Positions 24,977-39,290 of a stretch of DNA of 64,000 bases are shown piece by piece. The position numbers were made by a program, and so were the translations under genes. The notes below the pieces were generated by a model. The model was not told the origin of the DNA. It searched no databases and saw only the letters and a list, made by a program, of their open reading frames with translations. Position 1 is the first letter of the stretch, and each line of letters opens with the position of its first letter. The DNA is from Ruegeria meonggei (GTDB lineage Bacteria > Pseudomonadota > Alphaproteobacteria > Rhodobacterales > Rhodobacteraceae): the NCBI RefSeq assembly GCF_900172215.1, contig NZ_FWFP01000002.1, forward strand, positions 434,001-498,000, given 5' to 3'.

Positions 24977-24992
24977 TGGTGCCCGGGGGCGG
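24977..24992. repeat. left attachment site (tRNA-Phe 3' remnant)
   Basis: Sixteen bases identical to the 3' end of tRNA-Phe including the encoded CCA, in the same orientation as the copy at 39216. It is the displaced end of the target gene after integration. No tRNA body is attached here. Confidence 0.88.
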
Positions 24993-24998
24993 CACAAG

Positions 24999-25015: not shown

Positions 25016-25111
25016 TTCATTCTTGTTCAGGTTCGCATTCATATACAACCTTCTAGCTGAATAAACTGTCCGGACTTGTCTTGCCGTGTTTGGCGCTATC
25101 CAATAAGATAA

Positions 25112-25131: not shown

Positions 25132-25134
25132 TAA

Positions 25135-26328
25135 ATGCGGGCAACGAACAGACTTTCAGCTTCCTTTGTAAAATCTGCACCGGTCGGTAAACACTGCGAT
25201 GGAGCTGGGCTTTGGTTTATTAAACGAGACGACGGTGGCGCGCAGTGGATGCTTCGTGTGACTGTGCATGGCCGAAGGCGCGAAATGGGCTTAGGCGGCT
25301 ATCCAACTCTTTCTCTTGCAAGTGCTCGAAGTGTTGCACAGCGATGGCGCACGGTTGCTGCGGAAGGCCGTGATCCGGTCAAGGAGCGTGAAGCAGAGGC
25401 ACGTGCGGCGCGGCGGGAAGATGTTTCACTTGCGGTTCTGACTGCAGATGCATTCGAAGCGCGAAAGGCTGAACTCAAAGGCGATGGAAAAGCAGGGCGT
25501 TGGCTCTCACCGCTAAATGGGCATGTACTGCCCAAGCTTGGAAAGGTGCCAATAACAGACATTGACCAGCGCGACATTCGCGACACCCTGGCCCCAATCT
25601 GGCACACAAAAGCCGACACAGCGCGCAAAGCAATGAACCGGCTAAACATTGTCTTTCGCCACGCGGCCGCGCTTGGATTGGACGTTGATCTTCAGGCAAC
25701 CGAAAAAGCCAAAGCGTTGTTGGGAAAGTCACGTCACAAGCCGAAACACATCCCAGCGATGCTGTGGAGCGATGTCCCTGCCTTCTACTCAAGCTTAGAG
25801 GAACCCTCGCTCACGAACCTCGCTATGAGGTTGCTCATCCTAACCGGTGTTCGCTCTAAACCTTTGCGCTTTATCCGGCTCGAACAGATTGAAGGAGACG
25901 TCTGGACTATACCCGGTGAGGCCATGAAAGGTCGAAAAGGGGCAACAAGTGATTTCCGTGTGCCGCTTTCGCAGGAAGCGCAACGCGTTATCGACCTTGC
26001 CCTACCGCATTTCAGAAATGGTTTCCTTTTTCCGAATACACGGCAGGGCGTGATCTCTGATATGACGCTCTCAAGGATGATGGAGCGTCGCAAATTGGAC
26101 GCCCGCCCGCATGGCTTCCGCAGCAGTCTTCGCGACTGGCTGGCTGAAGCCACCGACGCACCTCACGAAGTAGCGGAAGCAATGCTGGGACACGTAACTG
26201 ACTCTGGTGTCGTTCGAGCTTACAGACGCACAGATTTTCTTGAGCAGCGTAGGGTGTTGAGCGAGCAATGGGCGAGCTACGTGTGCGGTGGAACTAGGGA
26301 AGTCGTGTCTTGCGTCTCAACACGGTAA
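25135..26328 (+). CDS. tyrosine recombinase integrase (DUF4102 type)
   Basis: 397 residues. An N-terminal DUF4102 arm-binding domain (GAGLWFIKRDDGGAQWMLRV, GLGGYPTLSLASAR) precedes the core-binding SAM-like domain and the catalytic domain. The active-site residues visible are Arg in LTGVRSKPLRFIRL, His-x-x-Arg in HGFRSSLRDW, the later His in MLGHVTD and Tyr in VRAYRRTDFLEQRR. It integrates the island at the tRNA-Phe 3' end. Transcribed inward from the tRNA-distal boundary. Confidence 0.93.
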   Translation: MRATNRLSASFVKSAPVGKHCDGAGLWFIKRDDGGAQWMLRVTVHGRRREMGLGGYPTLSLASARSVAQRWRTVAAEGRDPVKEREAEARAARREDVSLAVLTADAFEARKAELKGDGKAGRWLSPLNGHVLPKLGKVPITDIDQRDIRDTLAPIWHTKADTARKAMNRLNIVFRHAAALGLDVDLQATEKAKALLGKSRHKPKHIPAMLWSDVPAFYSSLEEPSLTNLAMRLLILTGVRSKPLRFIRLEQIEGDVWTIPGEAMKGRKGATSDFRVPLSQEAQRVIDLALPHFRNGFLFPNTRQGVISDMTLSRMMERRKLDARPHGFRSSLRDWLAEATDAPHEVAEAMLGHVTDSGVVRAYRRTDFLEQRRVLSEQWASYVCGGTREVVSCVSTR

Positions 26329-26541
26329 TTAACGCTAGCCGGGACCACTCTAAATACAGTGGCTGAGCAAATCTAAACAGCTACATATTGAATTGCACCA
26401 ATTAGTCCGCTAACACTGGAATTGTTGCTGCGCAAGATGTGCAGCTCGTCTTCCCCGACACGGGGGCACCCATTGGTGGGACGAGCGGCCGTTTGCGATC
26501 ATTCTGGCTTTCGTCCCGAGTAAGAAAGGACGACTGTCACA
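26329..26541. other. intergenic region between integrase and alpA-like gene
   Basis: This 213-bp gap contains an imperfect hairpin, GCTGCGCA-AGA-TGTGCAGC (26427-26445), without a T-run, and presumably the promoter of the downstream phage-like cassette. I see no gene in it. Confidence 0.35.
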
Positions 26542-26748
26542 ATGAGCACATCCACGGCGACTTCCGCAAAATACCTGACCCTAATGGAACTTCGCGAGAA
26601 GCTCGGGAACCGTTCTCGTTCATCCATTTATGCCGACCTGGCTGCAGAGCGGCTTCCCAAACCCGTCAAACTGGGTGGTCGTTTGCTGTGGATCGAAGAG
26701 GAAATCGATTCCCACCTCCGCGCTCTGCGCGATGGCGACATATGCTAA
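26542..26748 (+). CDS. AlpA-type DNA-binding protein (recombination directionality factor)
   Basis: 68 residues with a MerR-like helix-turn-helix: YLTLMELREKLGNRSRSSIYADLAAERLPKPVKLGGRLLW. AlpA proteins of P4-like elements activate integrase or act as excisionases. Position between the integrase and the replication-like genes fits that role. Confidence 0.88.
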   Translation: MSTSTATSAKYLTLMELREKLGNRSRSSIYADLAAERLPKPVKLGGRLLWIEEEIDSHLRALRDGDIC

Positions 26749-26865
26749 TCGCGCGCAGTGGAGGATCCATTATGGTCGATCGCTTCGATACATCGACAAT
26801 AGCTAACATCACTTGTGACGCTGTAAGCCCAAGGGAACTTGGAAAGCTGCGGCAGGTTACTCACG

Positions 26866-27618
26866 ATGAGTAATTTCAACGCCAAACGTGCCCGCACAAA
26901 ACGTCCCTGCCCACTTTGGGTAGACGCATTCCAGCGTGATACTCAACCCCTCGCAGCCGATGAAGTTGGCGCCTACATGCTTATTCTCATGGCGATGTGG
27001 GTGCGCGAAACATGTGATTTCCCTGATGATGACCGCCGTCTAGCGGCGGTCTCCAGGGTATCTTTCCGCCTCTGGAGGTCACGCATCGGGCCTGCCATCA
27101 GGGAGTTCCTTGAAACCGAAAATGGCGTCCTAATTTCCCGCCGGTTGCGAAAAGAAGCTGCTTACGTCGAACGCCATTGCAAGACTCAATCCGACCGGAA
27201 ATCGGGGAAAAAAACGGGTAACCCATTGGGAAATACAGGAACACTATCAACCGAGGGAAAATCCGCGGTTGCAACCGTGGATACCCCCACGGACAAACCT
27301 ACCCAACTACCCAACAACCCAAATATTACCATTCCTGACGGAATGGACGGCAACGCCGTCGATGCGACAGATGTCGTTTGGTCGAAGTGCAAGGGTTGGC
27401 TGGTTTCGAAAGGTGTCGATGACCGCCAGGCCCGCAGTGTCATTGGCAAGTGGCTGAAGAGGAGTTCAGTTAGCGAGGTTCGGGCGGCCTTCATTGACGC
27501 CTACCACGCCAAAACCGGAGACCCGATCCCCTACATCACCGCAATTCTCGGCAAGCCTGCACAGCCTACCACGGCTGAACTCATGGCGATGGCGAAGGAG
27601 GTAAATGCAAAACGATGA
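26866..27618 (+). CDS. DUF1376 (YdaU-like) phage replication-associated protein
   Basis: About 250 residues. The N-terminal DUF1376 domain reads CPLWVDAFQRDTQPLAADEVGAYMLILMAMW, typical of YdaU-like proteins in lambdoid phage replication regions. A low-complexity linker (about residues 115-160) leads to a C-terminal helical segment (VWSKCKGWLVSKGVDDRQARSVIGKWLKR) of the kind seen in replication initiators. ATG 26866 is used. The stop overlaps the next ATG by 4 bp. Confidence 0.82.
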   Translation: MSNFNAKRARTKRPCPLWVDAFQRDTQPLAADEVGAYMLILMAMWVRETCDFPDDDRRLAAVSRVSFRLWRSRIGPAIREFLETENGVLISRRLRKEAAYVERHCKTQSDRKSGKKTGNPLGNTGTLSTEGKSAVATVDTPTDKPTQLPNNPNITIPDGMDGNAVDATDVVWSKCKGWLVSKGVDDRQARSVIGKWLKRSSVSEVRAAFIDAYHAKTGDPIPYITAILGKPAQPTTAELMAMAKEVNAKR

Positions 27619-28235
27619 CCATGTTCGACCGCAAGCGGCGGGAAACCTTCTTGACCGACAAGATCACCGGCTATCTCGACCGCAAGGCCCCGCCTCGCAG
27701 CCTCGGGGCTCAAGCTCAGGCCAACGAGATGGCCTCACTGGTTCGTTGCTTCATGCGTTTTGCCCCGAAAGACGGTTACGAGGATTGGTGGCCGAACTTC
27801 GAGGATCGGCTTGACGAGGACGCCAAGACCCGCGCATGGCCCACCGCCGGAGAAATTAAGGCGGCGGCAATGGCAATCACCGGCCCGTCCTCCCGGCGCA
27901 TTGCCGAGGGCAACGAGTTTGACCCTCTGGATGTGAACGCAAAGCGAATGCATGCCGGTGAGCGGGTGTCTGATGGCTATCTCTATGGGCGTCTTTCTGT
28001 CGAATTGGTGGCAAGTGGGAAAGTCAGTGAAGCCCAGATGCGCCGCTATCGCGCGGCGTTTATCTTTTGGCTCAAAGACACCTACGACGAACCAATTGCG
28101 TTGGCGAAAGTTGCCGAGTTCGAAGCCCGCCATGCCGCTGCGGAGGCCGCTGCGCATGAACCCTTAGAGCCGCGCGCCTTGCCCAAGCCGCAACCCAAGA
28201 TAGTACCCAGACACGAATGGGATGGTGCAGCATGA
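27615..28235 (+). CDS. hypothetical island protein (206 aa)
   Basis: No recognised domain. It is charged, predicted helical, with MTMFDRKRRETFLTDKITGYL at the start and a basic-to-proline-rich C-terminus (PRALPKPQPKIVPRHEWD). ATGA overlaps on both sides show it is co-translated with the DUF1376 protein and the following 38-aa reading frame. In this position phages often encode DnaC- or replication-accessory proteins; that is only context. Confidence 0.75.
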   Translation: MTMFDRKRRETFLTDKITGYLDRKAPPRSLGAQAQANEMASLVRCFMRFAPKDGYEDWWPNFEDRLDEDAKTRAWPTAGEIKAAAMAITGPSSRRIAEGNEFDPLDVNAKRMHAGERVSDGYLYGRLSVELVASGKVSEAQMRRYRAAFIFWLKDTYDEPIALAKVAEFEARHAAAEAAAHEPLEPRALPKPQPKIVPRHEWDGAA

Positions 28236-28348
28236 ACGCAATGTCAAAACTAGCCTCTATGGAAAGCAAGGGGACCGGCGCCACCCCCTTCGCCTCGCGC
28301 CCATCATGGGGTTTGCCAACTATGTTAACAAATGTTGGTGTTTTCTGA
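28232..28348 (+). CDS. 38-aa translationally coupled micro-ORF
   Basis: ATG 28232 overlaps the previous stop (ATGA), and the TGA at 28346-28348 overlaps the next ATG (TGATG). The product would begin MNAMSKLASMESKGTGATPF and end TMLTNVGVF. Being joined at both ends to its neighbours argues for real translation, at least as a coupling device. No family recognised. Confidence 0.5.
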   Translation: MNAMSKLASMESKGTGATPFASRPSWGLPTMLTNVGVF

Positions 28349-28719
28349 TGGGGCGACCGACCAATTTTGAGAAGAAATTCCGTGCGCGCTTTCAGTGTGA
28401 CCCCATTGATTGGCAGGCACTACAGTCACGTTGGCGGCCGTGCCCAGCAGAGGCGCACAAGCACCCAAACTATCGGAGGGATTGCTCACAGTGTCGCGGT
28501 GCAAACTGCAAACAGATGGCGGAGCTGGGCTTGAATGATTCCGGTGAACGACTGCCTAAGTCAGAGCGCCCAACATGCAACGCTAAGACCCGTGCAGGAG
28601 GCCAATGTCAGGCACGTGTAGTACCTGGCAAGCGGCGATGCAGGTTGCATGGTGGTCTCAGTACCGGCCCCAAAGGGAAACGAAGAAGCAAGGCCAATCT
28701 TGAGCAAGAGGGCGACTGA
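28348..28719 (+). CDS. HGGxSTGP-motif phage protein
   Basis: About 123 residues from ATG 28348; the frame is open further upstream, to ATG 28222. Two Cys clusters (CPAEAHKHPNYRRDCSQC, CNAKTRAGGQC) precede the motif CRLHGGLSTGPK. Small proteins with this HGGxSTGP motif are common in phages and satellites, often near terminase genes, and may bind zinc and DNA. Start chosen for the TGATG junction with the micro-ORF. Last gene of the phage-like cassette. Confidence 0.78.
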   Translation: MGRPTNFEKKFRARFQCDPIDWQALQSRWRPCPAEAHKHPNYRRDCSQCRGANCKQMAELGLNDSGERLPKSERPTCNAKTRAGGQCQARVVPGKRRCRLHGGLSTGPKGKRRSKANLEQEGD

Positions 28720-28721
28720 AG

Positions 28722-28740
28722 GGAGGCGGGCGACGCCTCC
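28722..28740. repeat. GC hairpin after phage-like cassette
   Basis: GGAGGCG-GGCGA-CGCCTCC is a perfect 7-bp stem with a 5-nt loop just after the HGG-protein stop. No T-run follows, so it is at best a rho-assisted terminator or RNA-stability element. Confidence 0.45.
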
Positions 28741-28912
28741 GTAGTACTGCCGGTAGAGCACGCAATCCGTTAGTAGTGGGTCTATATAGTGTTACGATTT
28801 CGTCCGTTATCTACCCTGTCTCAACGACGTCGCTGTCCGACACATCGTTCTGAAAAATAGCCGCCTGTAGAACTGATACCATCCGGTTCACGCAAAAACC
28901 CGAAAGCTCAAA

Positions 28913-31468
28913 CTAGTTCGCACTGAGTTGCATAATACGAACTTCCAGTATCTTTTTTGCAATCCCCAATTGTGCGGTCAAAATATCGACCCTTTCACGG
29001 TTCCGTTTTCCAGCGGCCTTTTCGATGGCCAATATTCCATCTTGGAGGGTTCCTTGCGCCCTTCTTAGCATCGTCATATCTCTGGACTTAGATAGACCAG
29101 CAATTTGGTCTGCAACGAACGTAGCTGTGTATTGGTCGAAAGATAATCCTCGTTTAATTGGTTCCGAAATAGACTTGAATAAATAGCCTAAATCTCCTTC
29201 TGCTGCCCCAATATAGCCTGTCATCGCCCTGTTTAGCCAGTCTGCTGTTTTTGAACGATCAATCTTCTTAGCCGAAGCAGCAAAATGCATGGCCCAAAGG
29301 TAAGCTATTATTGATTGTGTGAAAAACGTCAATTTATCAGGATTGCCGCTTCCAGATATCGACCGAGCTTGCGTTGACCTGCACTCACCGATCTTCGAGT
29401 AAAATTCGGATCTGTGTCTGTCAGAAAAGTTTTCGTCAGTAGCAACACGCTCACAAAGTGAAACCGCTTCTAGAAAACGATACCCTGTTTTGCGCTCCGC
29501 GTAAAACCACGCACGAAGCATAAAAATATCTTTGTAGCCAAAGCTATCAGCTTTCTCAAACAAACCACGCGCTTTCGACAGATCAGGCGGCTCTGATTGC
29601 ACGTAAGCTTGCCCTAGAACTGATAGGAACTTTGGATTTACTTTTACAGCATCGTTCTCGTCGATTTGCTTGGCCTCCAAGACCACTTGACCGTACTTTC
29701 CTTCACGCACAAGCCGTTCGAATTTGATAATCGTCGTGGCTTCTTGCGGAGTGGATTTAGCTGTGTCCCGACGGAAGTGTTCAACTGCACGCTTGACTGC
29801 CTCGTAGTAAGGAAGTCTCTTTGATACTGATCGAACAAAGCCCTGCGCAGATGGAGAGAGACTGTACCCAGTAGTTTCGTCATCCTGGGTCGAAATCTTC
29901 AAGAAAATGTTTGCGGTTTCGTTGATTGCAGATCGCACTTGGTCGTTAGAAGCGTTTGTTATCGCGCAAATCGCGTCGAACCCCAGCGGGCCACCATACT
30001 CCATAAGAGCTGCAAGGACTTGGCGGCTTTTACCGTTAAGGTCCAGCTTGTCGTATTCTCGTTGATAGAGGTATTTTCTAGCGGCCTCGCCCCCCTTGTC
30101 TTTGAAGTCTCTTAGAGCCTCGTGATAAGAACTACAGTTTGTTCGGAGACCAACAACGGTTTCTATAAGCAGTGGCAAACAAGAAGTTTCTTCCGCGATA
30201 CGCTCTATTGCGTCGCTGTTTGGCATCTGGGGTCCAAACAACTCGCAACACTCTTCTAAAAACGCGGGAAGTTCCGCTTCTTTATCTAATCCCGGAACAG
30301 AAATTGCTGAGTTTTTAGCATAAGAAGCGTCATTTCTAAGGGTATAGATCAGCTTTATGACCTTGCGCGCTTGGCTACAAAGTAGGAACAAGTCTTCTTC
30401 ACCTGTATCCTGACCACTCCTACTGAGCGCGTCGATGTCGTCGATCACGATCAACCCGTTATAGGTATCAAAGAGACCTCTTATTTCATTGAGCAAACCT
30501 TCTCCACTCAGCAGCTCTGTTTCGGCTTCCGAAAATCCACCGACATCTTTCAGTATCAAACGATACAATTCCTCAGCTGTAGAAAACTGCCTACTGCCAA
30601 ACAATTGCTCTGCGCCGATGCGAACGTTCAGTTCGGTCTCCTTCGAAGAAACAAATAACGCAAAGTCCAGCTTCTCCCCATTTTGCAGACTTGCAGCTTT
30701 CCAGTTGTACGCGACTTGGTCCAAAAACTCATATGCCAACGTGCTTTTTCCAGAACCACCAGGTCCCGAAAGATAAATTCTTGGCATCCGGCTCAGCAAA
30801 AGCCATTTCCAAAGCTCAGTCGTCAATTCTGTACGACCAATAAAGTTAGGTAGTGTAGACGGCGATGGAGGTGCTGAGTATTGAATACCCGAAATATTTT
30901 CATCTGCTTCGTCGAAAGGATTTTCGCGGCGCGAAAACACTAAAGGGAGGTGATGGCTGCTTGCGGTTTTTGCTTCATGGCGTTCCCGTATGTACAGCTT
31001 GCCCTTGTCAATTTGATGGTAGGTTCTTTGAGAAATGACTGGTTCCGTAGTTGTGCGCTTTGGAACTAACACAACAGATATCGTTTTGCTGTCGCCTCCG
31101 ACCGTCAATTCGTAATTTCGCCGAATCAATTCGAAGCGCGTACCAAAAATTTCAGTTACTAGGGAATTGAATTTTTCAACATCGAACGATCCATTTACAC
31201 CGACCGGTTTAAAGTCCTTGTCACGAACGCCAAATACAACGATCCCACCGAATGTATTGTGAAACGCTAGAAACAGTTTTAGCAAACCTGATCGATAATT
31301 CTCGTCCTTTGGAGCCGGGAAATCCTCCTTGAAGTCGAGCAGAACATTCTCTTGAATTACGAACTGATCGTTTTTAGTGTCATATAGATCATCAAAAAGA
31401 TCAAAAAAATCTTCTGAAAGACTCCCTGCACAAACCGCCTCATGCAATTTCGTAATTTCGGCCTTCAT
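28913..31468 (-). CDS. AlbA_2 (Schlafen-like) - STAND NTPase - TPR-like protein
   Basis: 851 residues in three parts. Residues about 37-165 form an AlbA_2/Schlafen-type domain (LLDFKEDFPAP, then FHNTFGGIVVFGVRDKDFKPVG). Residues about 205-480 form a STAND/NB-ARC-like NTPase: Walker A GPGGSGKST (235-243), Walker B GLIVIDDIDAL (338-348), an IYTLRND segment and the GLPL-like SCLPLLIETVVG. The rest is helical and TPR-like (VLGQAYVQSEPPDLSKARGLFEKADSFGYKD). STAND proteins of this build act as sensors with an effector at one end; the AlbA_2 part may be the nucleic-acid-acting effector. AT-rich relative to the chromosome. Next to a restriction-type operon on the same strand. Anti-phage defence is inferred. 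Confidence 0.82.
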   Translation of the reverse strand: MKAEITKLHEAVCAGSLSEDFFDLFDDLYDTKNDQFVIQENVLLDFKEDFPAPKDENYRSGLLKLFLAFHNTFGGIVVFGVRDKDFKPVGVNGSFDVEKFNSLVTEIFGTRFELIRRNYELTVGGDSKTISVVLVPKRTTTEPVISQRTYHQIDKGKLYIRERHEAKTASSHHLPLVFSRRENPFDEADENISGIQYSAPPSPSTLPNFIGRTELTTELWKWLLLSRMPRIYLSGPGGSGKSTLAYEFLDQVAYNWKAASLQNGEKLDFALFVSSKETELNVRIGAEQLFGSRQFSTAEELYRLILKDVGGFSEAETELLSGEGLLNEIRGLFDTYNGLIVIDDIDALSRSGQDTGEEDLFLLCSQARKVIKLIYTLRNDASYAKNSAISVPGLDKEAELPAFLEECCELFGPQMPNSDAIERIAEETSCLPLLIETVVGLRTNCSSYHEALRDFKDKGGEAARKYLYQREYDKLDLNGKSRQVLAALMEYGGPLGFDAICAITNASNDQVRSAINETANIFLKISTQDDETTGYSLSPSAQGFVRSVSKRLPYYEAVKRAVEHFRRDTAKSTPQEATTIIKFERLVREGKYGQVVLEAKQIDENDAVKVNPKFLSVLGQAYVQSEPPDLSKARGLFEKADSFGYKDIFMLRAWFYAERKTGYRFLEAVSLCERVATDENFSDRHRSEFYSKIGECRSTQARSISGSGNPDKLTFFTQSIIAYLWAMHFAASAKKIDRSKTADWLNRAMTGYIGAAEGDLGYLFKSISEPIKRGLSFDQYTATFVADQIAGLSKSRDMTMLRRAQGTLQDGILAIEKAAGKRNRERVDILTAQLGIAKKILEVRIMQLSAN

Positions 31469-31553
31469 TACACCAACCTTTGTAGTCTTGTTTTATGTTA
31501 GAGGAGACGAACTTTGGGAAAGCTAAACCTGATATCGCGATTGATAGGATAAT

Positions 31554-32717
31554 TTAACTTCCTAATCTGAGAGTTTCGTGGATATCTTCGGCTACTATGC
31601 GGGCAAGCTGCACGGGCACCGCATTGCCCAGCTGTCGCATAGTTTCAGTCCAAGAACCGTGAAATACCATGTCATCTGGAAAAGTTTGCAGTCGCGCGCT
31701 TTCGCGAACAGTAAAGTAGCGAATTGAGCCATCTGGGCGTCGAAGCATATTTTCTCCGCCCGGTACGCCATGCACTCCGGCTTTTAGTGTTTTCGCTGGT
31801 TCGTCTAGTGGGCTGCCGGTATGACCCGGATAAGAACGCGCACCGGGCTGAAAGTGATGATCATGGAAGTGTGCTGCCAAATCAGGCTGAATCTCCGGGT
31901 CTGGGAGATCGCTAATAGCCTGTCGAACCGTAATCCAAGGCAAACTGTCCGGTTTGTCCTTCAGTTTTTCAGCGCGCGCTTGGCCCCTGCCACCCTCAGG
32001 TCGATTCTTCTTTGCAACTTCAAGTAGGTCCCAATATTCTCCGGAACGCCATTGCGACCAAAGTAATGCGTCTTTCGAGTGCGTTTGGTTAGGAAAATGC
32101 CAGCGGATTTCCGTATCTCCTCGAAAACCAACAAAAAACACCCGTTCACGCCGTTGGGGAACGCCGTAGTCCGCAGCATTGAGAACCTGTTTTATCACGC
32201 GGTAGTGTAAGCCATCCTTAGAACCAAAGGTGTGATGCTCTTCCAGCCGAGCGAGGTGTTCGAGCCACTCTTCGTTTTCCCGCGCGACAACGTCAGGATA
32301 CGACAGTTGCAAGTGAATATACTCTAAGTAGTTGGCAAAACTACTACGCGTCAGCCCCTTGACGTTCTCGAAAAGAAACACGGAAGGCTTTAATTCTCTC
32401 ACAGCACGTATCGCTTGAGGAAACATATCTCTCTCGTCGAGAAACGCTCTATGCTGTCCACCCATTGAGAACGGTTGACAAGGTGGACCTCCTGTAACCA
32501 ACGACACGTCGTCTGAAATGGATGTGAAATCAAAGTCTTTTACATCACCCTGATGAATTGGCCAATGGGCAATCGGATGCAAGCCTCTGGCTTTGTTCTC
32601 TCGCAGAGTATCACAAGCCCAGCGATCCCAGTCCATAACCGCAACAGGCTCAAATCCAGCCAAGCTGGCTCCCATGCCTAACCCGCCCGCACCAACGAAG
32701 AGTTCCACCGAGCGCAT
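31554..32717 (-). CDS. C5 cytosine DNA methyltransferase
   Basis: 387 residues with the ordered motifs of Dcm-type enzymes: motif I ELFVGAGGLGMG (5-16), IV GGPPCQPFS with catalytic Cys80, VI FENVKG (116-121), VIII PQRRERVFFVGFRG (187-200) and a C-terminal RESARLQTFPDD. It methylates cytosine C5 in a recognition site set by the region between VIII and IX, which cannot be read from sequence. Start codon overlaps the vsr stop by 1 bp (TAATG). Acts with the Vsr, helicase and MORC genes upstream as the modification arm. Confidence 0.94.
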   Translation of the reverse strand: MRSVELFVGAGGLGMGASLAGFEPVAVMDWDRWACDTLRENKARGLHPIAHWPIHQGDVKDFDFTSISDDVSLVTGGPPCQPFSMGGQHRAFLDERDMFPQAIRAVRELKPSVFLFENVKGLTRSSFANYLEYIHLQLSYPDVVARENEEWLEHLARLEEHHTFGSKDGLHYRVIKQVLNAADYGVPQRRERVFFVGFRGDTEIRWHFPNQTHSKDALLWSQWRSGEYWDLLEVAKKNRPEGGRGQARAEKLKDKPDSLPWITVRQAISDLPDPEIQPDLAAHFHDHHFQPGARSYPGHTGSPLDEPAKTLKAGVHGVPGGENMLRRPDGSIRYFTVRESARLQTFPDDMVFHGSWTETMRQLGNAVPVQLARIVAEDIHETLRLGS

Positions 32718-33127
32718 TAGTTCAAATACTCCTTGATTTCCCTTTCAAGCCAATCTTCATCTTTAACCTGACATTCCCAAATCACTAACGAACTCCAGCC
32801 CATTTTCACAAGCAACTTCGAGTTTCGTTGGTCCCTCTGCTTGTTCTGTTCCAATTTCGGGTACCAAAAGTCCAACCTAGATTTGGGCAGGCGTGCGAGA
32901 CGGCAATTCGTATCATCATGCCGATGCCAGAAACAACCGTGAACGAAGATTACCTTCCTTTTAGGCCTAAAAACCAAATCAGGCTTCCCAGGCAAATCCC
33001 TACAATGGAGACGGTAACGATAGCCCATACCGTGAACCAAACGGCGCACCAACAATTCGGGCTTTGAGTCTCTCCCGCGAATACGCTTCATACGTTCGCT
33101 TCGCTGTTGCTCCGTCAGTGTATCCAA
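32717..33127 (-). CDS. vsr: very short patch repair (Vsr) endonuclease
   Basis: 136 residues, the usual length. MKRIRGRDSKPELLVRRLVH at the front and catalytic Asp50 in GKPDLVF are present, followed by VIFVHGCFWHRHD with conserved histidines. Vsr nicks next to T:G mismatches arising when 5-methylcytosine deaminates, which fits the methyltransferase gene directly downstream. The start is TTG 33127 with GGGGTAG upstream; no earlier ATG exists in frame. Confidence 0.93.
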   Translation of the reverse strand: MDTLTEQQRSERMKRIRGRDSKPELLVRRLVHGMGYRYRLHCRDLPGKPDLVFRPKRKVIFVHGCFWHRHDDTNCRLARLPKSRLDFWYPKLEQNKQRDQRNSKLLVKMGWSSLVIWECQVKDEDWLEREIKEYLN

Positions 33128-33204
33128 TTTTTGTATCTACCCCGCTAGCCGAGCCTATTGTTGCTTAGAGCTTCTACGCCAGCCAGACTGGGCGTGATCT
33201 TAAG

Positions 33205-33726
33205 TCAATCCAACCAGACGATCTTTTGGATGCCGAGCCGCTGGGACGCAATTTCAACTACGTCACGCTCTGACGCTAAATCAAACTTTGCCGCTGACTC
33301 CGTCAGCACGACCGCAAATGGCTTGCCAATCTCAAACGAACGCTCAAAGATAGCCATAAGCGTAGCTTTCCATTCGCTCGATTTACTCCACGCAATCTGT
33401 CGACCGTCGGACAACAAACAACCGTGAGGTTTTATATAAGTTTCGGCTATCGCTTCGTCTTGCGCTATTCCAAGGACTCTCATTATGCGAGTTGGATCGG
33501 CAGACGCCTCGCGCATGTATGATTTTAGCAAAGTATCCTTTATGTAAACACGGACCTTTCGCGGATCCATATACCGGCCCAATCTGCCCCCAATTGCCTC
33601 AGCTTCAGTCCAATTTGTGTAGTACCTTGACTTATCGGTCGATGCCAAAGCCGACCAGTTCAAACGATCAGCTTCCTCCCATAAGATCTTCCGAATTTCT
33701 TCTCGAACTTCGGCAGGAACTCTCAT
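33205..33726 (-). CDS. hypothetical protein of MORC/Vsr restriction operon (173 aa)
   Basis: No family recognised. The N-terminus is helical (VREEIRKILWEEADRLNW), then a charged middle (YMDPRKVRVYIKDTLLKSYM), then an alternating strand/helix C-terminal half (KPHGCLLSDGRQIAWSKSSE, ATLMAIFERSFEIGKPFAVV) ending IQKIVWLD. It overlaps the helicase stop by 4 bp (ATGA), so it is made with it. Could be a specificity, inhibitor or nuclease subunit; the sequence alone does not decide. Confidence 0.75.
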   Translation of the reverse strand: MRVPAEVREEIRKILWEEADRLNWSALASTDKSRYYTNWTEAEAIGGRLGRYMDPRKVRVYIKDTLLKSYMREASADPTRIMRVLGIAQDEAIAETYIKPHGCLLSDGRQIAWSKSSEWKATLMAIFERSFEIGKPFAVVLTESAAKFDLASERDVVEIASQRLGIQKIVWLD

Positions 33727-35396
33727 TGCACATTTCCTGATTGAGTAGGCGCCGGAAATTCAAATCGAGGGATTTCAAGTTGTGGGTCGCCTTCTCGAAG
33801 CATGAGGTCAGCCTGATCCTTGAGCCACTCAAGCATAAAACTCCCTGCGGACGCATCCCGAAAACTAATTAGATTTTGGCCTAGTGGAAGTCGCTCGATA
33901 GGGCCCGAAGCAGACTTTTCTAGCTCCACAACTTCCGCCATGCGGCGCAGATCAGTAACAAAATCCAAGACAATCACCTTGTCCTTTCCATCACTTATGC
34001 GGAGTCCACGGCCTAACTGCTGCACGAATATTCGCCTGCTATGTGTCGCTCGCATAAAGGCGATTAAATCTACATCTGGCACATCGACCCCCTCATTAAA
34101 GAGGTCCACGCTTGCAAGAAGGTCAATATCACCTCTACGGAACATTGCCATTAACTGATCACGTTCGCGCGGCTCATGTCGCGAGGAAATGGCTTCCGCA
34201 CGCAAGCCATAGCCGCGTAACACACCAGAAAATGCCTCGGCGTGATCGACTGTTGGCGAGAACACAATTCCACCACGTCTTTTCTCGCTAATGAAAGCTT
34301 CCGCTATGAGACGAGCCGCCTCTTCATCGCGGGTAGGCATTAGAAGCCTCTTATTCAATTGGTTCAACGAGTAATTATGCGCCGAAATATCCTGAACAAA
34401 TTTCCAATCTATGTTGTCCGCAAGCAGTCGGTAATCGACTTCGCACAGAAAACCGTGCTGCAAACCATCAGAAATGCCCAGCTGGATCAGTGGCTTGCCA
34501 ATCAGCTCATCAATGTCAAATCCATCTCCCCGCCAAGGCGTCGCTGTTACTCCACCAACCATAGGCGGTTCGAGAGCATCAATGGCGCTTCGAAATGTCC
34601 GAGAACCTATATGATGCGCCTCGTCAACTAAAACCAATCCAAAGTCGGGAAGGTCGTCCAGCCTCCCAATAACGCTTTGTACAGTTGCGAATGTTACCCC
34701 CTCAAAAAACGAAGGTGTTTCACTGCTTGAGAGTAGATGTGTTGGAATCCACTTGGGAAGCTGTTGCCAAAATCCAAATTGGAGTTGTCTTACGAGCTCA
34801 ACCTTGTCAGCCAGAACCAGAACTCGATTGTGCGGAATCAGCTGATCGCGATACAGGTCTGCGACGACTTCCGCCATTACGACGGTTTTCCCCAGTCCTG
34901 TAGCGAGTACCGCTTGCGCTTTGCCTGTGTCTGTAAGTCCTTCCCTGAATCGATTGACAGCTTCGGTTTGATAAGGCCTCAAATCTCGGCGAGTTCCTGT
35001 GTACTCATCTACTTCTTTCGACAAGCGCAACAGGCGCGCTGGATCGAGAAGTTCGACGGTTATCCCTATTCTGCGTAAGCGATCTACCTCGGCTTCAATT
35101 CCCCCACCTATGGCACGGGATGTAGCGACGATCATTCTATTCGCTTTATAGAAAGTTCCAGCATCTACAACTTCTTGAACGGCCGTCTTTGGCGCAGGCG
35201 CGGACGTCGTGTGCTTACACTGAACAACCCAAGTCTCCCCATTCTTCACACCGAGCACATCCGCGCCTTTGTCACCAGAACCACCGACAACGCGTACGTC
35301 TTCAAAACCTGCGTGCATTAATAGCCTTGCCACGTCGCGTTCAAAGGCTTGCCATGGTCCTCTTAGCAGCCGCCGGTCATCAAGAAATGCCGTCAT
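33723..35396 (-). CDS. Mrr-type nuclease / superfamily 2 helicase fusion
   Basis: 557 residues. The first about 120 form an Mrr-like PD-(D/E)XK nuclease: Glu19 in AFERDVARLL, Asp46 in SGDKGADVLG, and Gln59-x-Lys61 in VVQCKH. Residues about 135-500 are an SF2 helicase with ATGLGKT (165-171), VDEAHH (257-262), GGVTATPWRGDG, LASVDLFNEGVDVPDVD and QQLGRGLR. Such fusions translocate on and cut DNA. Overlaps the MORC gene stop and the 173-aa gene start by 4 bp each. Probably the restriction motor of the operon. Confidence 0.9.
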   Translation of the reverse strand: MTAFLDDRRLLRGPWQAFERDVARLLMHAGFEDVRVVGGSGDKGADVLGVKNGETWVVQCKHTTSAPAPKTAVQEVVDAGTFYKANRMIVATSRAIGGGIEAEVDRLRRIGITVELLDPARLLRLSKEVDEYTGTRRDLRPYQTEAVNRFREGLTDTGKAQAVLATGLGKTVVMAEVVADLYRDQLIPHNRVLVLADKVELVRQLQFGFWQQLPKWIPTHLLSSSETPSFFEGVTFATVQSVIGRLDDLPDFGLVLVDEAHHIGSRTFRSAIDALEPPMVGGVTATPWRGDGFDIDELIGKPLIQLGISDGLQHGFLCEVDYRLLADNIDWKFVQDISAHNYSLNQLNKRLLMPTRDEEAARLIAEAFISEKRRGGIVFSPTVDHAEAFSGVLRGYGLRAEAISSRHEPRERDQLMAMFRRGDIDLLASVDLFNEGVDVPDVDLIAFMRATHSRRIFVQQLGRGLRISDGKDKVIVLDFVTDLRRMAEVVELEKSASGPIERLPLGQNLISFRDASAGSFMLEWLKDQADLMLREGDPQLEIPRFEFPAPTQSGNVQ

Positions 35397-37792
35397 TCGA
35401 TCATCTCGGAATCCGGTTTAATCAACTCAAGCGCAAGCACGGCTCTTACTACTTCGCTTCTCGGTTTCTCTATCAAGTCATCGCTCGCTTGCTCGGACAA
35501 CCAAATCGCATCAGACAGCAAGGATGTATAGCGGCCCAACACGCTAGCGCGAGCTTCGTCTGTTATGCTTGGGTCGCCGTAGTCGAGGTGCTCGTAGGGG
35601 GCATCCCAAATTGCGCCATCAAAACAGAGCTCCGGGCGTTTCTTCACAATTCCAAGCAAAATCTTGAAAGGCGCAGAAACGAGAAACTCGCCATTGGGCG
35701 TGACATCCGTTGGCTTGATCTTTTTTGTTGCCAACGCTCTCATAACGGTAGTTTGCTCTTCAAGATTCAAATCATCGAACAGTGTACCACGCTCTTCTTC
35801 CGGACATTGAGCAACCAATGACCTGGCGATATCAGTAAGAACCAGAGTAGCGTCGTTCGGTAGCGTCTTAAAATCTAGATTGTTTTCCTCTCCGTAGGTT
35901 TGGCGGTACTCAGATAGAATGCTTGCATAATCCGGCTTTTCCAACAAATTGCGCGTTTGATCAGCTGTCTCGTGAGCCAGATGAGAAAGCAACGCATCGC
36001 GCGGCGTTACTGTTACAGACCGAAAAACTGGATGACTCGGATCATATAGAAAATGGTGCGTTTTGGTCGTCACATCTCCCATTACAAGTGCCCATGGGAC
36101 ACCCGTGGGCAAATCCGGGTCCGCCGGCTCTACCTCGAAGGCCAAAATATTCCATTTCAGACCGGATGAAGCGTGATTGTACCTTCTACTAAGCAAAGGT
36201 GCTTCCCGACGCGGAGGAAGCTTTGGTTTTGCCTCTTTAGTCGGAGATTTTTTTTTCCCATCGTCGGGAGGGTTGTCACTTGGAGGAGGATCACCAATCA
36301 ATCCCGGCGGCAGGTCTACGCCACCACTGGAATGACTGTCCGAACTCCCAGCACTAGTTGTACGCCTGTTACCGAGCAACAATTCCCTGTCTGCTGCCTC
36401 GACAAGCTCCCACCACTTTGCGTCGTCTTGATATTCAGGAGCACCATCATGGTATTGGTTCGACATCTCCAAAGCACGTGCATTGTCTTTGACAATCAAT
36501 ATTCTGCCATAGGCGCCGGCGGTTTTAGAGTGCGGGCTAGTGCGCCTAAATGCTTTAAAAAGTCGAAACAACGGCGAATCGTTGGCTCCGTATCCAAGGT
36601 CCTTTGCTTTCTCAGGTAGAAGTGGTCCATCTCCCCTTACGATACGAACCATTTCATCCCATGTTGGATCAGCGCGATCAAAACGGTCTTTTGCGTAGCT
36701 AACACGGCAATGATCTATGTGAATCTCGCCGACTATTCTTCCGCGGTTGCGTTGGTCGTCAATGGGATACTCCCTCAGTTCGTTTTCGCCATCGCTCCAA
36801 GAAAACAAATCCTTACTACCAATTTCAATTTTTCTACCGTTGCGAATAAAGTCTATGCCGAACTCAGACTGATGTAAGTATCTTTGTATTCCCAGCCAAC
36901 CAGTCACTCTTCGTTTTCGGCTGACCACAGAGTTTGCCATCTCGCAATTGGGACAAGGTTTACCTTCCTCTGCACCGCGCAACCAACTCATGCAGCTGGT
37001 GCAATATAGTCTTTCGGCAAGTTCGCTGTTAATTGAGGTAACGGCATTTACGGTAGTGCCGCCCGGCCCAGGCACGACCCTGTCTTCATTCCAAAGACAA
37101 TGCCTGCGGGCTTCAACGCGTTTGTGGTTGACGTACAGCTCAAAGCTTATTGGTACACCATTTTTTCGCAGCATCGAGGAATATGCCTGCGCGAGACGTT
37201 TTCGAGTTGTGGTTTGGTTTGCATTTTTCGCAAGCCACTTTCGTTGTTCTGGCTTCAGTTGCTTGATCGTAATTTCGGTACCATGTTGTTCCGGATCAGC
37301 CTTTGGTCTTGTAAAATGTGGTGTCTTGTAGTGCCTTTGGCGGCGCAACTTTTCGAAATCAATCAGCAGCCCATGCCATTCTCTTTCTCCCTTACGTGTT
37401 GTCCACACTTCGGTCAGCGATCCAAGCCGGGCGGTGGCAATGTTAAAACCCATCCCAAAGAGACCCAAACTATCAATCGGATTGTTTCCAGACCAACCCG
37501 CCCGCACAGCCCGTTCTAGAACATCCGGCGCCATCCCGGAGCCATTATCAATGACCCTCAGCGTGGCCCCATCAACATTTGCTTGGGGCAAATGCACATC
37601 GACCCGTGTTCCGGCGATAGCGGTACCTGCTCGACTCTCCTTTAGAAAGCCATCGATAGCATTGTCCACAAGTTCTGCCACGCAGCGCCACTGATCGATG
37701 CTTATTTCGCCAAGCATCGGCAAAACACGAGGATCCGGTTCTAAATTAAACTCCCCAGCTACTTGACCAATACTTGGTTCAGCAATTGCCAT
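35393..37792 (-). CDS. MORC/MutL-like GHKL ATPase with zinc ribbon
   Basis: 799 residues. The GHKL ATP-binding motifs are present: ELVDNAIDGF (40-49), DNGSGM (82-87) and GLFGMGF (110-116). A zinc-ribbon-like CxxC-x12-CxxC follows at Cys264, 267, 280 and 283, then an S5-like region (GDGPLLPEKAKDLGY). A proline/lysine-rich linker sits near residue 500-530, and the C-terminal helical part is unassigned. GHKL ATPases of the MORC/MutL class are known in restriction-modification loci with SF2 helicases, C5 methyltransferases and Vsr. ATG 37792 has GGAG and AGAG upstream. First gene of a five-gene operon. Confidence 0.88.
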   Translation of the reverse strand: MAIAEPSIGQVAGEFNLEPDPRVLPMLGEISIDQWRCVAELVDNAIDGFLKESRAGTAIAGTRVDVHLPQANVDGATLRVIDNGSGMAPDVLERAVRAGWSGNNPIDSLGLFGMGFNIATARLGSLTEVWTTRKGEREWHGLLIDFEKLRRQRHYKTPHFTRPKADPEQHGTEITIKQLKPEQRKWLAKNANQTTTRKRLAQAYSSMLRKNGVPISFELYVNHKRVEARRHCLWNEDRVVPGPGGTTVNAVTSINSELAERLYCTSCMSWLRGAEEGKPCPNCEMANSVVSRKRRVTGWLGIQRYLHQSEFGIDFIRNGRKIEIGSKDLFSWSDGENELREYPIDDQRNRGRIVGEIHIDHCRVSYAKDRFDRADPTWDEMVRIVRGDGPLLPEKAKDLGYGANDSPLFRLFKAFRRTSPHSKTAGAYGRILIVKDNARALEMSNQYHDGAPEYQDDAKWWELVEAADRELLLGNRRTTSAGSSDSHSSGGVDLPPGLIGDPPPSDNPPDDGKKKSPTKEAKPKLPPRREAPLLSRRYNHASSGLKWNILAFEVEPADPDLPTGVPWALVMGDVTTKTHHFLYDPSHPVFRSVTVTPRDALLSHLAHETADQTRNLLEKPDYASILSEYRQTYGEENNLDFKTLPNDATLVLTDIARSLVAQCPEEERGTLFDDLNLEEQTTVMRALATKKIKPTDVTPNGEFLVSAPFKILLGIVKKRPELCFDGAIWDAPYEHLDYGDPSITDEARASVLGRYTSLLSDAIWLSEQASDDLIEKPRSEVVRAVLALELIKPDSEMIE

Positions 37793-37824
37793 TTCTCTTT
37801 ATCTCCGACTAAATAGCGGCACTT

Positions 37825-38580
37825 TTGACGCTTAATCAGGACGTTACCGAGGTCTCAAACCAGACACAACCGATGGAAGAATTTACTTCGCAGGAACTCT
37901 TTCGAAAGCCACCTACTGGGCTCGAGGATTACTTCGAGCGTATGCGTCCGATCGTGGACAACACAATTCTAAAACTCAGCAAGGCCAAATTTCGTGAAGA
38001 CCCCATTGCGGGTCGAAAATACTCGCGTGCGACTTCAATTGTCAGCTCAGCTTACAAACGGCACGGCACTCTGCTGGTCCAAGCGTTGCTTGAGAGACTG
38101 AGGGACTGCGCTCATCTTCGCGTGTGGACAGAGGACGATTTCAAACTTTCGCACGAGTCTCTCGAAAAAACGCGCGTCGTCGAACGAATTGAGGCACTAG
38201 TGAATACACATTTGCCATACGGCGATCGGCAGCGATCAATTCGAGTGGACATGTTTGTTTTGGACGAGCATCGCAATTCGCTCAATGCATACAGCATAAA
38301 AAGAGGAAATGGCTCATATGACGGCGGCAAACGACGATCTATACTTACTGAACTAATCAGAACCCAAATGCTCCTGAAAAGCTATGCAAACAGCCTCGAT
38401 ATTGATCCAGTTTGTGTCAACGCGCACATCATATTCTACTATGGCGTGATGTCCTTGACGCCCCCGTTTGCGATAGACGGCGGTGATCTTGATAAGCACT
38501 TCAGTTTCCCAGTGCGAGAGGCCATAGAGTTGGTGAATGACTACTTCGCGACAATGCTTAGAAATCTAATCGAAGAATAG
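37825..38580 (+). CDS. predicted PD-(D/E)XK-like nuclease, divergent to MORC operon
   Basis: 251 residues from TTG 37825; ATG 37873 is an alternative start (in-frame stop at 37810). I do not recognise a named family. The middle reads RSIRVDMFVLD (Asp142), then LNAYSIKRG (S-x-K, Lys159), then a long helix (GGKRRSILTELIRTQMLL) and a hydrophobic strand (VNAHIIFYYG). Strand-D, strand-x-K, helix, strand is the order of PD-(D/E)XK nucleases, with Ser in place of the usual Glu. It is 32 bp from and divergent to the MORC operon, in the same AT-rich block. A restriction-endonuclease role is inference. Confidence 0.72.
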   Translation: MTLNQDVTEVSNQTQPMEEFTSQELFRKPPTGLEDYFERMRPIVDNTILKLSKAKFREDPIAGRKYSRATSIVSSAYKRHGTLLVQALLERLRDCAHLRVWTEDDFKLSHESLEKTRVVERIEALVNTHLPYGDRQRSIRVDMFVLDEHRNSLNAYSIKRGNGSYDGGKRRSILTELIRTQMLLKSYANSLDIDPVCVNAHIIFYYGVMSLTPPFAIDGGDLDKHFSFPVREAIELVNDYFATMLRNLIEE

Positions 38581-38639
38581 ACCTGGCTAAAAATAGATGG
38601 TCAGCTGCCGTCATCAAGGACGGCAAGGTATATTGGTAA

Positions 38640-38990
38640 ATTACTCCCGCAGCCAATTCGGAGAACGCGATGTCTTGGTGGGACATCACAAAGGCAGGGG
38701 ATGCCAACCCGCGTCGAACCTTGTGCCAGGCGGTGACGTTCATGATGCTTCGCGCATGCCTCTTCTGGCTACGAACTTGGGTATACCATGATGCGAAGCA
38801 ACGAGGACGAAAGGAAGCAAATGTTGCCCTGACTCGGCGCAATGCAGTCGTCTTGCACCTTATGTGGCGAGACGGGACGTCATTCGATAATGCTGCGCCG
38901 CCAGTAACCGCCTATACAAACCGATCAGAAATGTATGATTGCACCTCACTGAGCGGCAATTCAGGAGACGAATTTCCGCTCCTGACGTAG
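38640..38990 (+). pseudogene. IS110-family transposase remnant (C-terminal part)
   Basis: The frame after a TAA at 38637 reads SWWDITKAGDANPRRTLCQA, VTFMMLR and later ALTRRNAVVLHLMWRDGTSF. This matches the usual end of IS110/Transposase_20 proteins (R/DITKxGDxxxRRxLxxAAxxMxxR ... ARKLAVVLHRMWxDGT). Everything before the C-terminal about 80 residues is missing, and no IS ends are seen. After DGTSF (about 38886) the frame runs on as unrelated sequence. Confidence 0.72.
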
Positions 38991-39140
38991 AATTTATCCT
39001 GTGGTGGTCCACGCTTCGACGGCAGCGTCAGCTAGACCGGTGTGTTTGAGGGCTTCACTGCAACCATCTGGCGCAGGCCTCCCTCAGCAGGGGATCGACT
39101 GTGGAACCGAACGAAGAATTGTGAGCACCCGGGCCGAATG

Positions 39141-39160
39141 GGTGGATATTGAGGTGGATA
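39141..39160. repeat. tandem GGTGGATA repeats, right end of island
   Basis: Two GGTGGATA copies 12 bp apart, 56 bp inside the right attachment site. They differ from the pair at 25112-25131 by one base and have the same orientation. Candidate arm-type integrase sites. Confidence 0.55.
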
Positions 39161-39215
39161 AAACCCACCTTCTATCTGGATTTTGTATAAAAATCATACA
39201 GATGGTAAATATTAG

Positions 39216-39290
39216 TGGTGCCCGGGGGCGGAATCGAACCACCGACACGAGGATTTTCAATCCACTGCTCTACCCCTGAGCTACCCGGGC
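39216..39290 (-). tRNA. tRNA-Phe (GAA)
   Basis: 75 nt with encoded CCA. Acceptor GCCCGGG pairs with CCCGGGC, D arm GCTC/GAGC, anticodon loop TTGAAAA (anticodon GAA), T arm GGTGG-TTCGATT-CCGCC. The anticodon stem has a T-T mismatch. Its 3' 16 bases are the right attachment site of the island, so the gene stays intact although the island abuts it. Confidence 0.96.

What the first reader, a model, noticed from the sequence alone, without database searches (positions are those of the whole stretch)
31554..37792. MORC-type ATPase restriction operon with Mrr-helicase, Vsr and C5 methyltransferase
Five genes, four junctions, three with overlaps of 1-4 bp. GHKL ATPases of the MORC/MutL class have been noted in restriction loci with helicases and methyltransferases, but the mechanism is untested. 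This operon adds an Mrr-type nuclease fused to the helicase and an unknown 173-aa protein. How a MutL-like clamp would control DNA restriction is an open question.
Basis: partly seen in the sequence, partly recalled or inferred. Interest (0 to 1): 0.78.

Follow-up and report, generated by a model that had tools for sequence, protein, structure and literature searches.

The report
MORC ATPase restriction cassette, overlooked nuclease relative
A small mobile DNA island in this bacterium carries a methyl-marking DNA-defence gene set built around a MORC ATPase, of a kind predicted in 2008 and, as far as I could find, untested, and it includes a sixth gene that looks like a restriction enzyme with an altered cutting site.

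Summary
In detail: five minus-strand genes, junctions -4, -4, +77, -1 bp, motifs intact. The class is known: Iyer et al. 2008 described MORC + SFII helicase (with RE-fold nuclease) + cytosine methylase + Vsr operons. Added here: (1) A sixth, divergent gene (37873-38580 +) encodes R251, a PD-(D/E)XK-like protein beside MORC in 15 of 87 related loci. (2) MORC, Mrr-helicase and the 173-aa protein (71 of 87) are co-inherited; the methylase less tightly; Eco29kI-type nucleases loosely. (3) 74 of 83 methylases share one target-recognition tail, pointing to a GC hexamer (GGCGCC likelier than CCGCGG). (4) R251 relatives away from MORC often pair with an adenine methylase and mostly keep the Glu of ExK; all 15 MORC-linked copies have Asn or Ser there, and 10 of 15 lack that methylase. 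(5) The set lies in a 14.3-kb island at tRNA-Phe. Best reading: an ATP-dependent restriction complex with MORC/helicase/Mrr as effector and R251 possibly a retired restriction enzyme kept for DNA recognition. Vsr is most simply m5C-deamination repair; 8 loci have a MutY-like glycosylase and no Vsr. No function was shown by experiment.

The parts
35393..37792 (-). MORC-class GHKL ATPase, 799 aa, with S5 motif (residues 312-322) and a CxxC...CxxC zinc-ribbon-like insert (264-283)
   Evidence: Pfam HATPase_c_3 4.4e-11; motifs I-IV in alignment A1 and S5/zinc patterns; PDB profile best match MORC3
33723..35396 (-). Mrr nuclease domain (14-125) fused to SFII helicase, 557 aa
   Evidence: Mrr_cat 1.3e-16, ResIII 3.4e-21, Helicase_C 2.1e-15; RadD 2.1e-36 and XPB 6.9e-16 by NCBIfam, both far below the curated cut-offs; motifs present
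33205..33726 (-). p173, conserved core protein of unknown function: helical N-terminal half, beta-alpha C-terminal half
   Evidence: in 71 of 87 MORC loci; no match in Pfam, PADLOC, NCBIfam or PHROGs; model pLDDT 91.4; fold matches weak
32717..33127 (-). Vsr endonuclease, 136 aa, TTG start
   Evidence: TIGR00632 1.4e-40; active-site patterns present
31554..32717 (-). C5-cytosine DNA methyltransferase, 387 aa; predicted site GGCGCC (CCGCGG possible)
   Evidence: DNA_methylase 2.1e-59; recognition tail shared with 74 of 83 relatives, 96% with R. leguminosarum pR132502 and 72% with M.Eco29kI
37873..38580 (+). R251, PD-(D/E)XK-like protein, divergent from MORC; 235 aa from ATG 37873 (ORF open from TTG 37825, 251 aa); ExK glutamate replaced by Ser157 (251-aa numbering)
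   Evidence: 15 of 87 loci, opposite strand to MORC in all 15; alignment A3; model pLDDT 78; EcoO109I Z 8.1; motif comparison and tree
37793..37872 (.). 80-bp divergent intergenic region between MORC and R251 (if ATG 37873 is the start)
   Evidence: sequence
24977..24992 (.). direct repeat, left end of island (att-like)
   Evidence: 16-bp exact repeat
39216..39231 (.). direct repeat, right end of island, 3' end of tRNA-Phe (39216-39290, minus)
25135..26328 (+). tyrosine recombinase of the island, 397 aa
   Evidence: Arm-DNA-bind_3 1.4e-15, Phage_int_M 1.8e-13, Phage_integrase 2.9e-10

Best explanation
A mobile restriction-modification cassette of the MORC class. Shown by sequence: gene content, motifs, co-inheritance of MORC, Mrr-helicase, p173 and R251, the shared recognition tail of the methylases, and the island borders. 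Inferred: the C5 methylase marks self DNA at a palindromic GC hexamer (GGCGCC about 60%, CCGCGG about 25%, other 15%); Vsr repairs T:G mismatches left when that m5C deaminates; MORC (ATP-driven dimer clamp), helicase (translocation), Mrr domain (cutting) and p173 form one effector complex that acts on DNA lacking the mark; R251, derived from a PD-(D/E)XK restriction enzyme that elsewhere is often paired with an adenine methylase, and whose ExK glutamate is replaced in every MORC-linked copy seen, serves as a DNA-recognition or loading subunit rather than as a free cutter.
For: Core genes in 83, 71 and 83 (helicase, p173, methylase) of 87 loci. Tree-distance correlations: MORC-helicase 0.86, MORC-p173 0.89, MORC-R251 0.86, MORC-PIN 0.93, against MORC-methylase 0.70 and MORC-GIY 0.37. 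Frequent 4-bp overlaps (MORC-helicase 41 of 84, helicase-p173 56 of 72). Shared recognition tail in 74 of 83 methylases. No Eco29kI-like nuclease in the host (positive control), so the MORC core is the only nuclease-bearing partner seen next to this methylase apart from R251 and Vsr. R251: Asn/Ser in 15 of 15 linked copies; of 10 unlinked copies that show the motif, Glu 8, Asp 1, Ser 1; adenine methylase adjacent in 5 of 15 linked loci and in 6 of 10 unlinked loci whose neighbours were read. Published class: PMC2292703.
Against: No experiment. Correlations do not remove shared phylogeny, and all loci were chosen by MORC. R251 is in one lineage only (15 of 87), so the site must be read by something else in the other loci. 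Ser at the Glu place can go with an active enzyme in the Cfr10I/Bse634I type (recalled), and one unlinked R251 copy (L152) also has Ser. 39 of 87 loci hold an Eco29kI-like nuclease ORF (profile or cluster), 5 of them together with R251, so a separate cutter often exists. R251's fold match is at the edge of what the tool calls informative (Z 8.1; no Foldseek E under 0.001).
Confidence: 0.55

Rival explanations
1. Conventional Type II R-M plus helper: R251 (here) or the Eco29kI-type enzyme (elsewhere) is the active site-specific nuclease, and the MORC/helicase/Mrr/p173 module acts after cleavage, opening and degrading the broken invading DNA.
For: 39 of 87 loci have an Eco29kI-like nuclease ORF; Vsr-methylase-GIY-YIG sets stand alone on three plasmids; R251 keeps D142 and K159; Bse634I and Cfr10I are among the weaker fold matches (Z 5.8 and 5.6).
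Against: 38 of 87 loci have neither R251 nor an Eco29kI-like ORF in the stretch examined (stretch and profile limits apply); linked R251 copies have all lost the ExK Glu; R251 kin elsewhere go with adenine methylases, not with this C5 methylase.
Confidence: 0.2
2. Two unrelated things side by side: a decayed Type II system (methylase + Vsr, nuclease lost) and a MORC/helicase/p173/R251 defence that senses something other than missing methylation.
For: MORC-methylase correlation (0.70) is lower than within the core (0.86-0.93); methylase and Vsr change side and orientation among loci; the methylase family also lives without MORC.
Against: A C5 methylase is in 83 of 87 MORC loci, with the same recognition tail in 74 of 83, in many phyla.
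Confidence: 0.14
3. Not defence but DNA repair: MORC and helicase act like MutL and UvrD beside Vsr to mend deaminated m5C.
For: Vsr or a MutY-like glycosylase is in 73 of 87 loci (65 + 8; only one of the eight glycosylases was family-scanned); Iyer et al. draw the MutL-Vsr-UvrD parallel.
Against: The same Vsr-methylase pair occurs on plasmids without MORC; p173, R251, PIN and Mrr nuclease domains are not needed for short-patch repair; the setting is a mobile island.
Confidence: 0.06

Closest known systems
Prokaryotic MORC operons with Rad25-like SFII helicase (Iyer, Abhiman and Aravind 2008, PMC2292703, first type)
   Same: MORC GHKL+S5 ATPase, SFII helicase fused to an RE-fold nuclease domain, cytosine methylase and Vsr in one mobile neighbourhood; Roseovarius sp. 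is named in their Figure 2 legend, and one of the loci here is from Roseovarius sp. 217 (L017)
Eco29kI-type R-M systems (CCGCGG), some with V and H (helicase) elements (PMC10855626, passages)
   Same: Related C5 methylase: recognition tail 72%, rest 43% identical to M.Eco29kI; Vsr partner; a helicase element is noted in some such systems
   Different: No Eco29kI-like nuclease in the window's island or host genome; MORC, p173 and R251 instead
VcSduA, paraMORC3-type Shedu (PMC12137116, passages)
   Same: GHKL ATPase in an anti-phage protein; both ATPase and nuclease residues needed there
   Different: Single protein with a C-terminal DUF4263 nuclease; the window's MORC has no such match and its nucleases are separate genes
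BbrUII/HgiDII family restriction enzyme (NCBIfam NF050001)
   Same: Weak partial match of the window's MORC (3.2e-5, 22.6 bits, residues 123-228)
   Different: Far below the curated cut-off of 550 bits
Mza anti-phage system (composition recalled)
   Same: MutL/MORC-like ATPase in a multi-gene defence (recalled); actinobacterial relatives here carry a sigma70_r4 protein after p173, with a marginal MzaA match (0.049)
   Different: No PADLOC match at all for this MORC; the helicase is Mrr-ResIII, with no Z1 or AIPR match among the proteins scanned

Membership tests
MORC family ATPase | GHKL motifs I-IV | tested here: met
   Present in the window protein and invariant or nearly so in alignment A1 of five; strict patterns for motifs I and II hit 57 of 85 relatives each, motif III 83 of 85
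MORC family ATPase | S5-domain motif GhXhhpXXRhl (as worded in PMC2292703) | tested here: inconclusive
   GIDFIRNGRKI at 312-322 fits 10 of 11 positions (Lys where a hydrophobic is asked); with that position free, 85 of 85 relatives fit
MORC family ATPase | Closer to MORC than to MutL or Hsp90 | tested here: met
   Profile against PDB sequences: MORC3 6.4e-8, MORC4 2.9e-5, Hsp90 types 0.005 and weaker, MutL 0.022
MORC operon, first type of Iyer et al. 2008 | Rad25-like SFII helicase with N- or C-terminal RE-fold domain next to MORC | tested here: met
   Mrr_cat at 14-125 and ResIII/Helicase_C; XPB model 6.9e-16 but RadD stronger, 2.1e-36, both below cut-offs
MORC operon, first type of Iyer et al. 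2008 | DNA methylase and Vsr in the neighbourhood | tested here: met
Type II R-M system | Methylase and a cognate endonuclease of the same site | tested here: inconclusive
   Methylase clear; R251 has a PD-(D/E)XK-like fold but an altered ExK and kin with adenine methylases; no activity data
Eco29kI-type R-M system | RE_Eco29kI (GIY-YIG) endonuclease | tested here: not met
   PF09517: 0 matches in the host genome; the two other genomes or records searched as controls rang
PD-(D/E)XK restriction endonuclease (for R251) | Fold of the superfamily | tested here: inconclusive
   EcoO109I Z 8.1, rmsd 3.8, 176 aligned; R2 retrotransposon and viral cap-snatching endonucleases 7.5 and lower; no Foldseek E under 0.001; no Pfam or PDB-sequence match
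PD-(D/E)XK restriction endonuclease (for R251) | D ... (D/E)xK catalytic motif | tested here: not met
   D142 and K159 kept, the acidic residue of (D/E)xK is Ser157 in the window and Asn in the 14 other linked copies; a displaced acid as in Cfr10I (recalled) is not excluded
Shedu / paraMORC3 | C-terminal DUF4263 nuclease on the GHKL protein | tested here: not met
   No such Pfam match at E 0.1
Mza system | Z1 helicase and AIPR proteins beside the ATPase (composition recalled) | tested here: not met
   No Z1 or AIPR match among the 10 window proteins scanned with Pfam; no PADLOC match for MORC

The most novel reading that the evidence does not exclude
A restriction system of unrecognised architecture: a Type II restriction enzyme (R251) that elsewhere is often paired with an adenine methylase was captured by a MORC/Mrr-helicase/p173 machine, lost its catalytic Glu, no longer needed its own methylase (absent next to it in 10 of 15 loci), and now serves as a DNA-reading subunit, while the MORC clamp and helicase-nuclease do the cutting and a C5 methylase gives the self mark. 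PIN_8 and sigma70_r4 proteins take the variable fourth place in other lineages (no locus of the 87 has two of the three).
Probability: 0.27. Interest if true: 0.75.

Novelty: new variant of a known kind. Interest (0 to 1): 0.52.

Why it matters
MORC proteins silence transposons and viruses in eukaryotes (general knowledge), and bacterial MORCs were placed in restriction operons in 2008; my eight searches of an open-access library showed no test of such an operon. This locus gives a compact six-gene unit with a predicted methylation site, a defined core (MORC, Mrr-helicase, p173, with R251) and a sharp prediction about one residue, so the question of what a MORC ATPase does in DNA restriction becomes directly testable. 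It may also show how a restriction enzyme turns into a recognition subunit.

Tried and rejected
Mrr-helicase fusion as a new feature: rejected, described in PMC2292703. Vsr as a restriction nuclease: not favoured, since it pairs with the methylase also on MORC-less plasmids, and 8 loci with a MutY-like glycosylase cluster have no Vsr match (0 of 8 against 65 of 79, Fisher p 5.5e-6, not corrected for kinship). Only one of those eight glycosylases (L090) was family-scanned; the rest are BLAST-cluster members. R251 as the cognate enzyme of the C5 methylase: weakened, since unlinked copies sit next to adenine-type methylases in 6 of the 10 unlinked loci whose neighbours were read (L148, L149, L150, L176, L177, L181; not L152, L178, L179, L180). 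L148 and L149 are near-identical; the L148 methylase was not scanned; L178 lies a few kb from ORFs that read like a Type I system (not scanned).

p173: the C-terminal half gives weak matches, some to nuclease folds (CdiA-CT Z 6.2, rmsd 3.5, 92 aligned; Can2 5.4; EcoT38I 5.1; XPF 4.4), others unrelated (orotate phosphoribosyltransferase 5.3, clamp loader 4.8), with no conserved D..ExK; inconclusive. Site avoidance in 298,589 bases of the host did not discriminate: CCGCGG 0.50, GGCGCC 0.51, GCCGGC 0.44, CGGCCG 0.52 of expectation. p173 against recognition tail: p173 in 67 of 74 loci with the shared tail and 2 of 9 with another, but several of the nine look like one lineage, so no conclusion. No R251 or MORC match in the 50,697 phage records; 5 IMG/VR contigs do carry the cassette with R251 (L119-L123). 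First profile iteration for the PIN and GIY families drifted, probably through a MORC-PIN fused ORF (L049); repeated with tighter limits. The Eco29kI-like count (39 of 87) rests on that profile plus a BLAST cluster; four members were scanned with Pfam: L015 and L040 over the RE_Eco29kI cut-off, L006 just under (30.7 against 30.8), L062 under it but over the GIY-YIG cut-off. Rows dropped before counts: L011 (same contig as L025); L001-L005 (short copies); L013, L014 (no MORC). Of 16 unlinked R251 loci put in, L170 gave no ORF match and L173, L174, L175, L179, L197 showed no motif.

Papers: PMC2292703 parts 1-2 of 4 and passages; PMC8011034, PMC12137116, PMC10855626, PMC1952068 passages; PMC8709438 passages and its figures-and-tables section; every other paper only as a search listing. 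The search for Mza names returned mostly noise.


Full report
OBSERVATION. Family scans support every named gene; the 173-aa protein (p173) has no match in Pfam, PADLOC, NCBIfam or PHROGs. PADLOC gives nothing for the ATPase. Catalytic motifs are present in the four known enzymes.

SETTING. A 16-bp exact direct repeat, 24977-24992 and 39216-39231, is the 3' end of tRNA-Phe (39216-39290, minus); a tyrosine recombinase lies just inside at 25135-26328. G+C in 29-39 kb is 0.465-0.505; outside the repeat it is about 0.56-0.60. So the set sits on an island of about 14.3 kb. An SLFN_AlbA_2/STAND-type protein (28913-31468) follows the methylase by 85 bp but was matched at none of the other MORC loci, so I treat it as separate.

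RELATIVES. Class-wide the ATPase is rare: 3 of 385 genomes including the host, at E 1e-20. One scan of the genome collection gave 327 relatives, of which the best 80 were returned; with the window, five plasmid loci and one more genome locus (L012) this makes 87 loci, chosen by MORC, near-duplicates kept. Present: helicase 83, C5 methylase 83, p173 71, Vsr 65, R251 15, PIN_8-type protein 24, sigma70_r4-type protein 19, Eco29kI-like ORF 39 (one PIN, one sigma70_r4 and four Eco29kI-like members were scanned with Pfam). The loci come from alpha-, beta-, gamma- and deltaproteobacteria, Actinomycetota, Deinococcus, Chloroflexi, Spirochaetes, an archaeon and others (record titles).

CORE AND ACCESSORIES. 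Rank correlations of tree distances: MORC-helicase 0.86 (n 83), MORC-p173 0.89 (71), helicase-p173 0.89 (71), MORC-R251 0.86 (15), MORC-PIN 0.93 (24); MORC-methylase 0.70 (83); MORC-Vsr 0.70 (65); MORC-GIY 0.37 (23). Each was reached by 0 of 200 permutations, except p173-GIY by 1; permutations do not remove shared phylogeny. The core is therefore MORC + Mrr-helicase + p173, with a fourth protein that differs by lineage: R251, PIN_8 or sigma70_r4, no locus carrying two of them. The Eco29kI-like nucleases are the loosest part; 5 of the 15 R251 loci have one as well.

SITE. The C-terminal recognition tail of the methylase (46 residues) is 59-96% identical to the window's in 74 of 83 loci; the other nine have 15-24%. 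M.Eco29kI from pECO29 (CCGCGG; site of the partner nuclease from PMC1952068 passages) has 72% in the tail and 43% elsewhere; the methylase of R. leguminosarum WSM1325 plasmid pR132502 has 96% and 59%. In another R. leguminosarum strain, RCAM1026, cytosine methylation at GGCGCC averages 98% and two R-M clusters with that predicted site exist, one on a plasmid of similar size, one chromosomal with a V and a 'Helicase domain protein' entry (PMC8709438, tables and passages). That the WSM1325 plasmid gene is the counterpart of the RCAM1026 plasmid gene is my inference. The tool used in that paper called the mark 4mC; a C5-type enzyme would make 5mC. GGCGCC is thus the likelier site. Hexamer avoidance in 298,589 bases of the host did not separate the candidates.

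THE SIXTH GENE. R251 starts most likely at ATG 37873 (80 bp from the MORC start) and runs away from MORC. In the 15 loci that carry it, it lies on the opposite strand upstream of MORC. The model (pLDDT 78) has the order of strands and helices of PD-(D/E)XK nucleases; EcoO109I heads the fold comparison (Z 8.1, rmsd 3.8, 176 aligned), followed by R2 retrotransposon ends and viral cap-snatching endonucleases, which I recall as the same superfamily; but Z 8 is near the level that the tool warns about, and no Foldseek E value is under 0.001. Its family is wider than MORC: 12 of 385 genomes at E 1e-5, against 3 of 385 for MORC at the stricter 1e-20. Of ten unlinked loci whose neighbours I read, six have an adenine-type methylase (MT-A70 or NPPF) next to R251, among them viral contigs where it lies by a terminase gene. 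In the tree the 15 MORC-linked copies are one side of a branch with support 100/99. Of 16 unlinked loci put in, one gave no ORF match, five showed no motif (fragments or divergent), and ten showed it: Glu 8 (two near-identical), Asp 1, Ser 1. All 15 linked copies have Asn (14) or Ser (the window); five more linked copies from viral contigs also have Asn. An adenine-type methylase lies beside R251 in 5 of 15 linked loci; the window's host genome has no match to either kind (controls 108, 110 rang in all other genomes searched). The order 'Glu lost, then methylase dispensable' fits, since those five also have Asn, but is an inference.

VSR. In 8 loci a gene of a MutY-like HhH-GPD cluster stands in the neighbourhood and Vsr is missing in all 8, against Vsr in 65 of 79 others (one member scanned). 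This fits the ordinary role of both, repair of T:G from deaminated m5C (recalled biology).

MECHANISM. Shown: composition, conservation, co-inheritance. Inferred: MORC dimerises on ATP and holds or loops DNA (looping proposed for the class by Iyer et al.); the helicase moves along DNA; the Mrr domain cuts; p173 and R251 supply contacts or reading of the site; the C5 methylase protects self. The host lacks an Eco29kI-like enzyme (control), which leaves the MORC core, with R251, as the candidate effector next to this methylase. Against: R251 is found in only one lineage, so reading of the site must be done differently elsewhere; and Cfr10I-like active sites (recalled) show that Ser at the Glu place can be compatible with cutting.

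KNOWN OR NEW. The operon class was described in 2008. Eight literature searches turned up no test of a MORC-helicase-methylase operon in the held library, which lacks most subscription journals. Verdict: new variant of a known kind.

Noticed in passing
window 28913-31468 (-): 851-aa protein with SLFN_AlbA_2 (2.1e-8) and STAND/AAA-type ATPase matches, 85 bp downstream of the methylase; no match at the other MORC loci; looks like a separate defence gene of the island.
   Followed up: partly
window 24977-39231: Island of about 14.3 kb at the 3' end of tRNA-Phe, with integrase, a DUF1376 protein (26839-27618) and the defence genes.
   Followed up: yes
L013 8099-9712 (+) and 9713-10516 (-): Second C5 methylase of the host genome (537 aa, on another contig) with a convergent ORF that reads like a restriction enzyme; the ORF was not scanned.
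   Followed up: no
L049 7992-10703: In Pararhodobacter marinus the MORC gene runs in frame into the PIN_8-type gene (903-aa ORF) and helicase and p173 are missing, as if by an internal deletion.
   Followed up: no
L063-L094, Actinomycetota loci (for example L089 12434-14026): A 440-530-aa protein follows p173 in 19 loci; the one scanned has a sigma70 region 4 match (8.2e-7) and a marginal MzaA match (0.049).
   Followed up: partly
L148, L149, L150, L176, L177, L181: R251 relatives with canonical ExK form compact pairs with MT-A70 or NPPF adenine-type methylases, also in viral contigs beside a terminase gene: apparently an unnamed Type II-like R-M pair.
   Followed up: partly
L054, L067, L069, L076, L077, L079, L085, L090: MutY-like HhH-GPD glycosylase cluster in MORC loci that have no Vsr; seven of the nine loci with another methylase recognition tail are L067, L069, L075, L076, L079, L085, L090, six of which are in this list.
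   Followed up: partly
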